64,000 nt of DNA. Source: Hyaloperonospora brassicae (taxonomy: Eukaryota > Oomycota > Peronosporomycetes > Peronosporales > Peronosporaceae). Positions within the stretch are counted from its first letter, which is position 1. Each line of letters starts with the position of its first letter. The notes beneath the pieces are model-generated. The model searched no databases and was not told the DNA's origin. It worked only from the letters and a program-made list of their open reading frames with translations. The DNA lies in assembly GCA_947650285.1 (NCBI GenBank), contig CANTFL010000990.1, positions 1-64,000 on the forward strand, written 5' to 3'. The translations under genes and the position numbers were made by a program. Positions 10,398 to 18,881 of the stretch are shown here, piece by piece.

Positions 10398-10843
10398 TGT
10401 AATAGGGTGAGTCCGTTACATAAAATTGATGTCTTTGCATCAATTTTTGAACATTATCTATTTACATAATGATCAATTGACATTACTCGTAAGGAGTAAG
10501 GTTGAAGGAATATTACCCCCGAGGGTAATATTTATTTGATGGGTTTCCCCACCTGATGGTTGATGTTCACGGTACATCAACCAGATTAACCACCAATCTC
10601 TGCTGGACGCGCGCAATTGGATGTGAGCAAGAAAACCACATACGAGATTGTAGTTTAATATAGTTAGCTCAAGACGAAAGATGGTTCATTAAAAACATAA
10701 CTATATTAAATACAGCTCTACTTTTTCCCTTGGACAGAGCTTTCGAGTTCTGCCTACTTCGCTGCGCTTCCTCACGCCACGTGTACGTGACGTCGGGTGC
10801 ACACAACCTTGTGTTGCATTGACACAAGGCGTTCCGCGTTACA
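10398..10843 (+). repeat. 5' LTR of element B (446 bp)
   Basis: Starts TGTAATAGGG (3' LTR: TGTAACGGGG) and ends GTTACA. It contains perfect stem-loops AAAATTGATG/CATCAATTTT, AATATTACCC/GGGTAATATT and GGTTGATGT/ACATCAACC: same serial layout as the LTR at 2257 but with different stem sequences. A TATATTAAATACAGC stretch near 10704-10718 could be a core promoter region (inference). Confidence 0.95.
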
Positions 10844-10845
10844 CC

Positions 10846-10856
10846 TGGTAGCACTT
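10846..10856 (+). other. Primer binding site of element B
   Basis: TGGTAGCACTT begins two bases after the 5' LTR, where a tRNA 3' end (…TACCA) primes minus-strand synthesis. The element at the right edge has the same bases at the same spacing (63934-63944). The primer may be an initiator-Met-like tRNA, but the tRNA was not identified. Confidence 0.75.
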
Positions 10857-10893
10857 TGTAGTCCGTCCGGCGACGACAACCACCTCATCCGAC

Positions 10894-15052: not shown

Positions 15053-17197
15053 ATGCTTGATGATTTTTTGGCAAATCCTTGTCGTAAATCTTTGAAAGAT
15101 TTACCGGCCTTTTACCGATCCTCTTCGAATCGATACACAACTCGCAACGGGTTGCTATACTATACGGCTGTTTCCGGCGACACACCCCGTGTCGTCGTCC
15201 CCACTCATAATAATTTGCGCTTACGCATCATGTATGAGTGTCACGATGCCCCTTCAGGTGGCCATCGTGGAAACGAAAAGACTTACCTTACGGTAAGTCG
15301 TGGATTTTACTGTCCCCTTTAGTATAAGTTTGTGCGCAAGTACATTCGTGCTTCCGAGGTTTGTCAGCAAGTAAAGACTAGTCCTTCTTCCCGTGCATCA
15401 TTACAGCCTCTTCTTGTCCCGGAAGAGTAATGGCAGTCCGTTTCCATGACCTTCGCCTTCGGGTTCTATGAAGACGCTCACAAGAATAATGGTATTCTTG
15501 TGTTTGTTGACCGGTTCATCAACATGGTTCATCTTGCTGCAGTTCCAGAGTTGATCAACGCTCACGGATGTGCGCGTGTCTTTATCGAAACGATATTCCG
15601 ACTTAATGGGTTACCCCGTGAACTCTTAACCGGCCGTGACCCTCGGTTCACGGCGGAGTTTTGGTATTCCGTGTTCCTATCACTCGGAACGCTGTTTGAA
15701 GATGTCAACATCTGACCATCCCAATACAGATGGCCAGACGGAACGTGCCAACCGCGTCCTCGAAGAGATCCTTCGAGGATACGTCCACTCAATCTCGAGC
15801 TGGAGCGAATTCCTACCTCTGGTGGAATTCGCCATCAATAATTCGGTGCATGCTTCAACTCATCACAAACCGTTCTTCGTGGATGGCGTAAGCCGTTCAC
15901 GTCTGTCCACCCTGTTAGAGTGTGACTCTTGGATAAGGGGGGAGGGACTCGCTCTATTAAAAACCCTTCTGGCTCTTGCTCATCACGTTCTGACGCAAAC
16001 GTCGTCACGTATGATGCCGATGTCGATCTAGTCGACATCGATGAAGGAGATTACCTCAATAATAGCGATCACGCTCTATTTGAACCAGATGATGATGATG
16101 CTGGTATTTTCAGCATCACCAAAGAATACTCCAGCGAGGACGAGGAAACCCTCGCTGATGAACAGAAAGAGGAAAACACTCTTTTTGCAGTTTGCACAAG
16201 GCGAACTGAACAAAACAAGGCCGAGTCAGCAGAAGGATTTCTGCTAACTCGCGAAGCAGTGGTCCGTTTTGTACAGGATTCCATCGCTCACGCGGTGGAC
16301 CAGCAGAAACAAAAAGCTGGCAAGAATGAGAGAGCAAATGTTTTTTCATTTACTGAAGGCGACTTAGTCCTACTATCTACGGTAAACTTACCTAGACACG
16401 TAGTAACCAATGTAGGCAGCAGTAAACTACTGCCCAAGTACATCGGCCCCTTTCGTGTGCTGCGCCGACAAGGCAACGCATACACGATCGAACTGCCACG
16501 TATGATGCGCACGCTTTCTACGTTGGAAGTGGGACGTCTCCGCCCGTACTGTCAGTATGAGCTCTCTTCTGATGATGAAAATAGCCCCCACGTTCGAGCA
16601 CACCTATTAGGTTCTTGCGCTCGCGCTTTAGACGATCAGTCTGGACGCGTAACGAAGGGACCTCTCCACGCAGTTCATAGATCGCTCTGCGAGCTGCCCC
16701 CAGTTCTTTGACGAGGGAGCGGACATCACGCTCAACCTGAAGTTAGGTGAGGGCGTAATCGGCACGATCCTTCGCCCGATCAGCCTCCCGATCCTTGCGG
16801 TGCTGCCGCACGGAATCGGCCAGATCGTAGCCCCTATCCCGCTCGTGCTACAAATACTCGCGCAATTGATCGATTGCGCTATCCATCTCGTTGTGGTTGA
16901 GATGGTGGGCAGAACGACTTGGAGGAGGGTTTTCCTCCTCATCCACATCCTTTGGTGGACTCACACGGTGGTCAACGCTTTCATGTGGAGCGTATCTTGA
17001 ACCACCGTGACGATTCAGGATCAAGGACGAGTTACCTCGTCCAGTGGCGGGTGTATCCACCCTCGTGGAACAGCTGGGAACCCCGATCCCAGTTGATGAT
17101 GGATGTTCCTGGTCTTGTCGACAGTACGATGAGACCCACCTTTTATAGGAGGACCGTCGGCGAACGAACGCCCGGAGCGTTCGTAAGGGGATTGTGA
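15053..17197 (+). pseudogene. Integrase and chromodomain of element B, frameshifted
   Basis: The zinc-binding start (HDAPSGGHRG, then a degraded Cys pair) and catalytic core are visible. The first catalytic Asp, normally in a MDF block, reads MTF (SMTFAFGFYEDA at about 15443), an Asp-to-Thr change. The second Asp is kept (GRDPRFTAEFW), and the Glu lies in GQTERANRVLEE near 15732 after a frameshift near 15690. Another frame change near 15900-15940 leads to the acidic region and the C-terminal GPFR motif (15929-16711). After a stop at 16709 the chromodomain follows in the same frame (VERILNHRDD, YLVQWRVYPPSWNSWEP, about 16985-17080). Confidence 0.9.
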
Positions 17198-18303
17198 ATT
17201 ATCAATCTCTCCGTACATGTCGGAAGAGAAACTCGCCCTCCGGTAGGGTTTTTCGGGAGAAAGGCCTCCCTAGGGGCGCGAACGGAGCTGTCTTCACAAC
17301 TTTGACAGGTCGCTTCCCACGAGAGGCAAGGTAAACCTGCCTTTCGAGGCAATCGGTGCAATTTACATCGAGCACCGGTGATGGACTTCTGTTCAAACTT
17401 ATTGCGAGCTGCAGTAAGTTTGTCCAGCCAAGTGTCACGGCCAACATTCTCAATGTTGCCGATGAAAGAATTCCACACCTGAGCCAACGAGAAATCGTCT
17501 CGCTTGTGATTACTGTGGTACCATCGATGCCTGAAAAAGACATCGATGTAAAATTTATGCTCAGTGAGATAATTCCTCGCACTGAGATCAAGTCCATGGA
17601 TCCTTGACAAGTCAAAAAGTGGGATTCGACAACTTTCAGTGGTATAACCATACCACTGTCTCAACTCGCTCAAGGTAGGCATCTATGGCTTGTTCTTAGG
17701 GGCAGATCGCAACGCGTTGCAATCTTGCTCCTCCTGCGTGGTGCCAACATGAGAGCTAGCACCGCCATCGCCGCAATACCTAGCGCTGATGCGGTTATGG
17801 CTACGATGACTCCGCGAATATTTATCGACAACCTCATGAGAATCTACGTCCTCATGTATTGCACTCGCCTAGTATAAATACGAGTGCGATAGGTTTGATC
17901 ACGGCGAAGACTTCATAGAATCGTCGGATGAACCAAACATCTCATGGCGCAAGTCTTTATCGAGACTGCCGCGAGGCGCAACATTATTCGTTTCCACAAC
18001 CGTACGGTCAGGTTTTGCGGACGGCTTCGAGTCGAAAGAATCCGAATCGCTCGAATAGACCATCTATATCTCGGGATCTTGGTCCATGGGACTACCACCC
18101 GCAGCCGAAGCTGCGGGTGAAGGATCTGCACATGGATAACCACGTGCTCCTGCAATTACGGGAGTTTCAGGCTGCTTACTGGCAGCAGCAGGTGACTTGA
18201 CACCTGCTGCTGAGTCTTGGACAGCTTGCCCTCCGGCTGAACGCATCCGTGAAGCCGCTTCAGTCGCGGCCTTGTTCGCGCATCGCATGGACGAACTTGT
18301 CAT
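17143..18303 (-). pseudogene. Antisense accessory ORF of element B, broken homologue of 522-2126
   Basis: The minus strand carries the counterpart of element A's antisense protein. The central domain is open from 17682 to 17143 with RIPLFDLSRIHGL, FYIDVFFRHRWYHSN, the TGAR motif and PCLSWEATCQSC. The Ala/Ser-rich N-terminus is open separately from ATG 18303 to 18064 (MTSSSMRCANKAATEAASR). The start codon sits 132 bp before the 3' LTR, as in element A (131 bp). The part opposite the chromodomain (about 16850-17060, ending QLREYL then a stop) is truncated relative to element A's coiled-coil tail. Frame breaks fit the age of this copy. Confidence 0.65.
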
Positions 18304-18435
18304 GCGATGAAAGGCTGAATGCGATGGGCAGTACCAGCAAGTTCTCCCTTTCTTTCAGATGGACCCAACGGTGGTCACTCTGTCACCAACCAATTCTATA
18401 ACTCACTGTAGTGGCTGGTGGTTAAGGGTGTGATG

Positions 18436-18881
18436 TGTAACGGGGTGAGCCCATTATATAAAATTGATATCTTTGCATCAATTTTTGAACATTATCTATT
18501 TACATGATGATCAATTGACATATCTCGTAAGAAGTAAGGTTGAAGGAATATTACCCCCGAGGGTAATATTTATTTGATGGGTTTCCCCACCTGATGGTTG
18601 ATGTTCACGGTACATCAACCAGATTAACCACCAATCTCTGCTGGACGCGCGCAATTGGATGTGAGCAAGAAAACCACATAGGAGATTGTAGTTTAATATA
18701 GTTAGCTCAAGACGAAAGATGGTTCATTAAAAACATAACTATATTAAATACAGCTCTACTTTTTCCCTTGGACAGAGCTTTCGAGTTCTGCCTACTTCGC
18801 TGCGCTTCCTCACGCCACGTGTACGTGACGTCGGGTGCACACAATCTTGTGTCGAATTGACACTTGGCGTGCCCCGTTACA
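18436..18881 (+). repeat. 3' LTR of element B (446 bp)
   Basis: Partner of 10398-10843, same length, ends TGTAACGGGG and CCCCGTTACA. Differences cluster at the two ends and near the AT-rich 18510-18530 stretch; the central 250 bp is almost unchanged. Confidence 0.95.

What the first reader, a model, noticed from the sequence alone, without database searches (positions are those of the whole stretch)
10398..18881. Retroelement sequence packed with short perfect inverted repeats throughout coding and LTR regions
In both Ty3/gypsy elements, perfect stems of about 6-12 bp with short loops follow one another through gag, pol and LTRs. Element B examples: 13910-13918/13930-13938 (GGATCTGAT), 13728-13734/13745-13751 (GTGAGGG), 14045-14052/14062-14069 (CAACAGAT), 14075-14081/14086-14092 (GGTGCGA), 15481-15488/15493-15500 (CAAGAATA), 15807-15813/15824-15830 (GAATTCC). 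In element A I picked out more than 25 between 397 and 1781, such as 481-492/495-506 (12 bp), 397-406/409-418, 1270-1279/1284-1293, 1469-1477/1489-1497, 1699-1706/1713-1720 and 1760-1768/1773-1781. Reading the host genes in the same window I did not see this texture. Possible causes: selection for an ordered genomic RNA structure (packaging, RNAi evasion, translation control), or template switching during reverse transcription that turns imperfect palindromes into perfect ones. Both are inference.
Basis: partly seen in the sequence, partly recalled or inferred. Interest (0 to 1): 0.92.

Follow-up and report, generated by a model that had tools for sequence, protein, structure and literature searches.

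The report
Hairpin-packed retrotransposons folded on both strands
Intact copies of a jumping gene in what is likely a downy-mildew genome carry a short, perfect hairpin every 70 to 80 bases, roughly forty times more than reshuffling their codons gives, and this likely keeps both of its RNA strands folded so that they would be hard to pair with each other or with silencing RNAs.

Summary
All 12 quoted stems are exact. Elements A and B hold 42 and 48 perfect stems (arm 8 or more, loop up to 15) against 0.7 and 2.0 in dinucleotide shuffles; host sequence matches chance. Six intact copies carry 30-43 such stems per open frame; codon-preserving shuffles average under 1. Decayed copies have fewer. 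Single Copia and LINE sequences and eight host-side ORFs lack the texture. Another Ty3 family has its own geometry, 5-bp arms with 3-nt loops.

G-T is no commoner than A-C among stem mismatches (44 against 56), so plain sense-RNA structure fits poorly: pairing seems to matter on both strands. Stem synonymous sites vary less among inherited variants; private mutations are even. Each of the three hairpin-bearing Ty3 families examined has a long antisense ORF. Best reading: selection keeps sense and antisense strands self-folded. That is inferred; no transcript was measured. Fold-back copying by reverse transcriptase remains the main rival. Nine answered paper searches gave nothing like it.

The parts
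1..2646 (+). Element A: 3' part of a young Ty3/gypsy element (window starts inside it); 42 stems of arm 8 or more with loop up to 15 in 1-3000
2..1150 (+). Open frame for the end of pol with SH3_Tf2-1 and Chromo domains (chromovirus)
522..2141 (-). Antisense ORF, 539 aa, first Met at 2126; overlaps the pol end; outside the overlap its third codon positions differ about twice as often as positions 1 and 2 (A vs L005); 11 protein relatives
2257..2646 (+). 3' LTR of element A (TGTAACGGGG...CCCCGTTACA), 7 stems of arm 8 or more with loop 2-15
10398..18881 (+). Element B: older LTR-to-LTR copy of a related subfamily, frame broken; 48 stems of arm 8 or more with loop up to 15, gag region and LTRs included
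10398..10843 (+). 5' LTR of B; target-site duplication TACTG/CACTG (one base differs) at 10393-10397 and 18882-18886; PBS-like TGGTAGCACTTTG from 10846, found by eye
   Evidence: sequence; repeats
18436..18881 (+). 3' LTR of B
13910..13938 (+). Hairpin GGATCTGAT/ATCAGATCC coding the RT motif D-L-M-D-G-F-Y-Q-I; its pattern occurs at 933 places in the genome
14044..14093 (+). Two adjacent hairpins in RT (TCAACAGAT/ATCTGTTGA and CGGTGCGA/TCGCACCG)
16018..16157 (+). Three hairpins of B that A also has at homologous places; one differs by a C-G to T-A double change (A 88-110 vs B 16096-16118)
16545..18225 (-). Remnant of the antisense gene in B (stretches 68, 52 and 36% identical to A's protein)
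61624..62017 (+). LTR (E), 87.6% identical to A's LTR, 8 hairpins of arm 8 or more; little of that texture follows it, so probably a solo LTR
63452..64000 (.). Part of another repeat (shared with L006, L018, L020) with the second geometry: 9 stems of arm 5 or more with a 3-nt loop in 63001-64000 against about 0.9 in ordinary 1-kb windows

Best explanation
Each strand of these Ty3/gypsy elements is tiled with short perfect hairpins, and selection to keep both the sense and the antisense strand folded on itself likely maintains them. Shown: the hairpins run through gag (in B), pol, the 3' region and the LTRs, depend on synonymous codon choice, are densest in intact copies, show no preference for G-U over A-C where they are imperfect, and carry fewer inherited variants than their surroundings. 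Shown: element A carries an antisense gene between pol and the 3' LTR, overlapping the end of pol, and two further hairpin-bearing Ty3 families have an antisense frame downstream of their RT. Inferred: the element therefore makes sense and antisense RNAs that could form long double-stranded RNA. Inferred: closing both strands removes the open stretches on which such duplexes, or small RNAs of the host, would start. A G-U pair in one strand is an A-C mismatch in the other, so only perfect pairs serve both; this would be why wobble pairs are not favoured. Predicted by folding: open 8-nt sites fall more than two-fold on each strand in two families with different hairpin sizes.
For: Excess over codon-preserving shuffles in all 6 copies (of 24 fetched) whose frame is open throughout: 30-43 stems against means of 0.60-0.95. 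Local folding energy z = -27 sense and -19 antisense for L003; Copia and LINE between -1.2 and 0.4. GT 44 vs AC 56 among single interior mismatches; shared variants 18 vs 27. Third-position shared variants: stems 75/262, outside 146/339, loops 41/75, P = 1.7e-5; private variants 85/262, 96/339, 28/75. Covariation 68/117 vs 166/551 slid. Codon register 3-3 used by 10 of 64 stems with arm 8 or more, against about 27% in codon shuffles of L003 counted at arm 6 or more. Two geometries, similar outcome: open 8-nt windows 0.053 vs 0.120 sense and 0.063 vs 0.157 antisense in L003; 0.068 vs 0.158 and 0.089 vs 0.200 in L047; Copia, LINE and one host ORF little changed. Antisense ORF conserved in L005, B and L021; 443-aa and 408-aa antisense frames in the other two families, the latter with 124 protein relatives, the named ones all from oomycetes. 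Passages seen: P. infestans small RNAs map along two Gypsy elements in both orientations (PMC3522703); 25-nt small RNAs of Phytophthora come mainly from transposable elements (PMC3804510); antisense transcripts of retrotransposons may make dsRNA and siRNA (PMC7264820).
Against: No antisense transcript, dsRNA or small RNA was measured. L046 has the hairpins but its open sites hardly fall (0.129 vs 0.141 sense), and windows open on both strands at once fall only modestly in L003 (0.032 vs 0.048, sd 0.010). Hairpins are about as dense away from the antisense gene as within it, so the antisense RNA would have to span the element. In 23 LTRs the covariation score and the number of pairs changed on both sides do not clearly exceed shuffles (361/500 and 65/500 reach them, 63/500 and 38/500; only the share of paired cells is above every shuffle), stems do not carry significantly fewer shared variants (P = 0.53), and shared GT outnumber AC 11 to 5. 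Element A by itself does not avoid the 3-3 register (4 of 14). Several hairpins were gained with changes mainly in one arm, as fold-back copying predicts. Faster change in loops is not explained. Non-Ty3 transposon controls are one Copia and one LINE sequence. Sequence cannot separate folding of two RNAs from folding of single-stranded cDNA.
Confidence: 0.42

Rival explanations
1. Fold-back copying: the element's reverse transcriptase switches onto its own new strand at imperfect inverted repeats and copies one arm from the other, so perfect hairpins accumulate wherever the proteins tolerate them; no benefit is needed.
For: Mismatches are strand-symmetric without wobble preference. Geometry differs by family, as an enzyme property would. 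Some gains in the L003 lineage changed mainly one arm: 2716-2748 (4 left, 0 right), 1535-1558 (0, 3), 2577-2600 (4, 1); against L013, 6 of 17 hairpins with 3 or more changes are one-armed, about 2 expected (my estimate; L013 is itself decayed). Among pair states private to one copy, 18 changed on both sides and stayed Watson-Crick, 15 did not. Stem codons lie at less conserved protein positions (0.41 vs 0.59 for arm 10 or more, P = 0.006; arm 7 or more P = 0.07), but so do loop codons.
Against: In the LTRs one hairpin's left arm differs in place between subfamilies by transitions only, with copies holding an intermediate (direction not established). Shared one-sided mismatches outnumber shared double changes that stay paired 94 to 3, so arms are not kept identical by copying. 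The 3-3 codon register is under-used overall. Fewer inherited variants in stems are not expected from neutral copying alone, though coupling to protein constraint could produce them.
Confidence: 0.27
2. Hairpins are selected in the single-stranded cDNA made during reverse transcription (compaction, protection or strand transfer), not in RNA.
For: DNA hairpins also need perfect pairs; the constraint is strand-symmetric and covers the LTRs as well as the genes.
Against: Copia, which also makes cDNA, lacks the texture (one sequence). It does not explain why the hairpin families have antisense genes.
Confidence: 0.16
3. Ordered sense genomic RNA, as in RNA viruses with genome-scale ordered structure: packaging, translation control or shielding of the sense strand only.
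For: Very low folding energy against codon shuffles; loops carry more inherited variants than stems; the LTR subset leans to G-T, 11 to 5.
Against: G-T is not preferred over A-C in coding stems; the G-U share of predicted pairs is half that of shuffles (0.067 vs 0.124); the antisense strand is about as structured.
Confidence: 0.12

Closest known systems
Ty3/gypsy chromoviruses (Metaviridae)
   Same: RVP_2, RVT_1, RT_RNaseH and Integrase_H2C2 along L003, SH3_Tf2-1 and Chromo at the pol end in A; LTRs, PBS-like site and TSD in B
   Different: Packed with perfect hairpins in every part examined of the L003/A/B families; I know of no such case, and the searches listed none
Genome-scale ordered RNA structure of RNA viruses (features recalled)
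   Same: Coding sequence chosen so that the RNA folds far better than codon shuffles
   Different: Simple perfect hairpins, no wobble preference, similar on both strands, in a retrotransposon; one search listed 5 papers with both terms, none by title about this
Plant LTR retrotransposons with antisense additional ORFs between pol and the 3' LTR (Grande, RIRE2, Retand; passages of PMC7264820)
   Same: Conserved antisense ORF in the same place in family A; antisense frames downstream of RT in two more families
   Different: Oomycete elements; A's antisense protein has no Pfam match above cut-off and its frame overlaps the end of pol; the word hairpin does not occur in that review
Quasi-palindrome correction by polymerase template switching (recalled)
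   Same: Makes perfect short inverted repeats
   Different: Known to me as scattered mutation hot spots, not as tiling of a whole element

Membership tests
Ty3/gypsy chromovirus | Protease, RT, RNase H, integrase in Ty3 order | tested here: met
   RVP_2, RVT_1, RT_RNaseH, Integrase_H2C2 along L003; the integrase core itself lies beyond L003's end and was not scanned
Ty3/gypsy chromovirus | Chromodomain at the pol C-terminus | tested here: met
   Chromo E = 1e-13 in window 2-1150
Ty3/gypsy chromovirus | Paired LTRs, target-site duplication, primer binding site | tested here: met
   for B (TSD differs by one base; PBS by eye, not matched to a tRNA); A-type LTR pairs 7,585-7,596 bp apart in the list
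Retrotransposon with antisense additional ORF (aORF-3R) | Conserved antisense ORF between pol and the 3' LTR | tested here: met
   for family A. For L070 and L071 the LTR was not located; L071's protein is conserved, L070's was not tested
Retrotransposon with antisense additional ORF (aORF-3R) | Antisense transcript | not testable with these tools
   no RNA data held
Genome-scale ordered RNA structure | Folding energy below codon-preserving shuffles | tested here: met
   z = -27 over the 3 kb of pol in L003; gag was not tested this way
Genome-scale ordered RNA structure | Structure selected in the genomic (sense) RNA, with wobble pairs tolerated | tested here: not met
   GT not above AC; the LTR subset leans to GT, 11 to 5
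Quasi-palindrome template-switch mutagenesis | One arm rewritten in one step from the other | tested here: inconclusive
   for; against

The most novel reading that the evidence does not exclude
A clade of oomycete Ty3 retrotransposons that carries antisense genes has turned its whole sequence into two-strand hairpin armour: each family evolved its own hairpin size so that neither its sense nor its antisense RNA offers an open site for duplex formation or small-RNA binding, letting it keep an antisense gene without triggering its own silencing.
Probability: 0.33. Interest if true: 0.95.

Novelty: new variant of a known kind. Interest (0 to 1): 0.86.

Why it matters
A mobile element whose synonymous sites are so largely spent on perfect hairpins shows a constraint on coding sequence of a strength that I have not met elsewhere (recall). 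If the both-strand reading holds, it is an answer to an open question: how an element can carry an antisense gene in a host with RNA silencing. It also offers a natural experiment, because hundreds of related copies exist and those sampled differ in hairpin content, and two families reach a similarly closed fold with different hairpin sizes. If fold-back copying is the cause instead, these elements record an extreme mutation process of a reverse transcriptase. Either way codon-based tests (dN/dS, codon usage, neutral dating) on such elements would mislead.

Tried and rejected
Chance or base composition: rejected by dinucleotide and codon shuffles. Genome-wide mutation process: unlikely, because one Copia, one LINE and eight host-side ORFs lack it; of the 20 sampled 10-kb stretches 17 have at most 6 stems of arm 8 or more, summing to 57 against about 33 expected, while L005, L021 and L013 have 31, 21 and 9. 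Post-insertion decay as the source: rejected, because decayed copies have fewer hairpins. Regular spacing: none, gaps fit random placement. Loop motif as a protein site: loops vary in sequence and length. Long-range stems: none in excess beyond loops of 50 nt in B; A has 9 against 2.9 at loops of 31-100 nt, not pursued. A first test of slower stem evolution used stems defined in one of the two sequences compared and is biased, so I rely; one search has a milder bias of the same kind. Loop inversion: considered for a few loops by eye, none seen. Relatives in viral contigs: none confirmed in one scan. The antisense proteins of the three families do not match each other detectably. (clusters of differences between close copies) could not separate recombination from gain and was not used.
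Full report
WHAT WAS CHECKED. The 12 quoted arm pairs are exact. In 2-kb steps of the window, stems with arm 7 or more and loop 3-15 number 35 against 1.4 expected in 1-2000, 61 against 4.6 in 10001-18000, and 24 against 29.5 in the host part 22001-60000 (sums of rows; 20 dinucleotide shuffles per row). 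For arm 8 or more and loops to 15, A (1-3000) has 42 against 0.7, B 48 against 2.0, the host part 9 against 9.0. The excess is largest at loops of 3-11 nt. Arms are mostly 8-11 bp among those of 8 or more; the longest seen in an element is 13 bp.

THE ELEMENTS. B is an LTR-to-LTR copy at exactly 10398-18881 with a TSD that differs by one base and a PBS-like site found by eye. A is the 3' part of a younger element: pol end with SH3 and chromodomain, an antisense ORF, and the 3' LTR. A-type LTRs lie about 4,350 bp downstream of the RT motif at C18, C33 and C41, the three places I compared, so A and L003 are one family; the full-length LTR matches that one search lists are 99-100% identical to A's, which shows recent activity. 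The RT-motif hairpin pattern occurs 933 times in the 100.6-Mb genome.

GENOME-WIDE. Of 24 RT-region copies (4, 20), the six with a frame open over the whole fetched piece (L003 1009 aa; L028, L033, L034, L036, L044 833 aa) carry 43, 30, 35, 34, 34 and 31 stems of arm 8 or more; 40 codon-preserving shuffles of each average 0.60-0.95. The five copies at 84-88% identity carry 3.2-6.0 per kb against 12.0-14.2 per kb in the intact ones. Twenty 10-kb stretches, placed by me at regular steps on contigs that carry the motif, include 17 with at most 6 stems of arm 8 or more (57 in all against about 33 expected) and three with 31, 21 and 9 (L005, L021, L013). So the hairpins belong to the working element and decay after insertion.

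WHICH FAMILIES. With the codon test, L046 (Ty3, 64% amino-acid identity to L003) has 8 stems against 0.45; L047 (Ty3, 59%), Copia L048 and LINE L049 have 0; eight host-side ORFs together 4 against about 3.1; a further ORF, L045, has 1 against 0.15. L047 turned out to have its own texture: 36 stems of exactly 5 bp against 14.6, and 19 stems of arm 5 or more with a 3-nt loop against 1.9. A second copy in L006 (40 five-bp stems against 14.2 by dinucleotide shuffle) and the family's 3' region L071 (46 against 17.6) show the same. One-kb windows with 5 or more loop-3 stems, about 0.9 being usual, lie in L005, L006, L018, L020, at window 63001-64000 and once in the host part (25001-26000, with 5). 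Mean local folding energy of L003 is -62.4 kcal/mol per 150 nt against -41.9 in codon shuffles (z = -27; antisense z = -19); L046 z = -4.2 and -4.9; L047 -4.1 and -5.7; Copia -0.8 and -1.2; LINE 0.4 and 0.1.

STRAND SYMMETRY. If a sense RNA were selected to fold, G-U pairs would be tolerated and A-C not. Among non-overlapping stems of nine pairs with one interior mismatch in eight sequences, some of them decayed, GT is 44 and AC 56; in L003, A, L005 and L046 alone it is 23 and 28. Stem ends show no clear GT excess (26 GT, 24 AC, 98 other outside; 15, 20, 57 inside). Among variants shared by two or more copies, single changes give GT 18 and AC 27. Predicted folds of L003 contain half the G-U share of codon shuffles (0.067 against 0.124). 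The LTR subset leans the other way, 11 to 5. Overall the requirement is for Watson-Crick pairs usable on both strands.

SELECTION OR COPYING. Variants private to one copy arose mostly after insertion; shared ones were mostly carried by transposing elements (assumption). With stems defined by any of 25 copies, a definition that does not favour conserved sites, third codon positions carry shared variants at 75/262 in stems, 146/339 outside and 41/75 in loops (P = 1.7e-5, stems against the rest), but private ones at 85/262, 96/339 and 28/75. With stems of arm 9 or more the contrast is weaker (P = 0.014). With stems defined in a third sequence, stems diverged less than outside in 28 of 31 comparisons, which overlap; the exceptions are B against L021 on L005-defined stems and two LTR pairs. 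Pairs changed on both sides are Watson-Crick in 68 of 117 cases against 166 of 551 for partners slid by 1-3 bases; B-defined stems seen in A give 9 of 9 (11 overlapping comparisons). In 23 LTRs the formal count gives no clear covariation: double changes and the covariation score are within or near the range of shuffles, and some slid versions do as well on double changes; one helix is misaligned by a base in one subfamily. In those LTRs one hairpin keeps its right arm GACTTAATT while the left arm lies 5 nt apart in the A and E types; the L060-type copies are intermediate, and the differences along the series are transitions (direction not established). Stems in coding sequence under-use the register pairing third positions with third positions: 10 of 64 (L003 6 of 42, L046 0 of 8, A 4 of 14) against about 27% in L003 codon shuffles counted at arm 6 or more. 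These points favour stepwise selection. Several gained hairpins changed mainly in one arm, which favours copying. Stem and loop codons both lie at less conserved protein positions, which both models allow.

THE ANTISENSE GENE. A 539-aa frame runs on the minus strand at 522-2141, overlapping the pol end. In its part outside pol (1152-2141), third codon positions differ from L005 at 52/330 against 23/330 and 24/329 for positions 1 and 2; from B at 133/320 against 85/318 and 95/320. Eleven protein relatives were found, two of them named, both Peronospora matthiolae. L070 (3' of L046) has a 443-aa and L071 (3' of L047) a 408-aa antisense frame, both running to the edge of the fetched stretch. The L071 protein has 124 relatives (120 listed), named ones in Peronospora, Hyaloperonospora, Albugo, Phytophthora and Nothophytophthora. 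The three proteins do not match each other detectably. So each of the three Ty3 families with hairpins that I examined has an antisense frame; whether Ty3 families without one also have hairpins was not tested.

MECHANISM. With 12 codon shuffles each, the share of 8-nt windows with unpaired probability above 0.1 falls in L003 from 0.120 to 0.053 (sense) and 0.157 to 0.063 (antisense), in L047 from 0.158 to 0.068 and 0.200 to 0.089; Copia, LINE and a host ORF change little; L046 barely changes; windows open on both strands at once fall from 0.048 to 0.032 in L003 and 0.059 to 0.025 in L047. Two different geometries thus reach a similarly closed state on each strand. Together with the antisense gene and the strict pairing, this points to avoiding sense-antisense duplexes or small-RNA access. 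Small RNAs against such elements are documented in Phytophthora: they map along two Gypsy elements in both orientations (passages of PMC3522703), and 25-nt small RNAs come mainly from transposable elements (abstract and passages of PMC3804510). That antisense transcripts of retrotransposons may make dsRNA is proposed in PMC7264820 (passages). That hairpins on both strands slow annealing is my inference.

PRINT. Nine answered paper searches gave nothing on hairpin-packed retrotransposons in their listings; of the papers only the three named were opened, for passages. The library holds open-licence papers only.

VERDICT.

Noticed in passing
window 522-2141 (-): Antisense gene of a Ty3 element overlapping the pol end; its C-terminal part has a weak Lzipper-MIP1 match below cut-off.
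   Followed up: partly
window 38393-38448: A lone 21-bp perfect inverted repeat with a 14-nt loop in the host part, longer than any element hairpin seen.
   Followed up: no
window 44231-44521 and 46634-46924: Direct repeat of about 290 nt, 73% identical, 2.4 kb apart in the host part.
   Followed up: no
L071 1-1224 (-): Antisense protein of a second Ty3 family with 124 relatives; the named ones, all from oomycetes, are called uncharacterized, unnamed or hypothetical.
   Followed up: partly
window 2257-2279 and genomic LTRs: The first nine bases of the LTR form a hairpin with bases just inside it, so the terminal TGTAACGGG occurs three times per LTR counting its inverted copies.
   Followed up: no
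L003 against 24 copies: Third positions in hairpin loops carry more inherited variants than those outside hairpins (41/75 vs 146/339; private ones 28/75 vs 96/339); selection for stems alone does not predict this.
   Followed up: no
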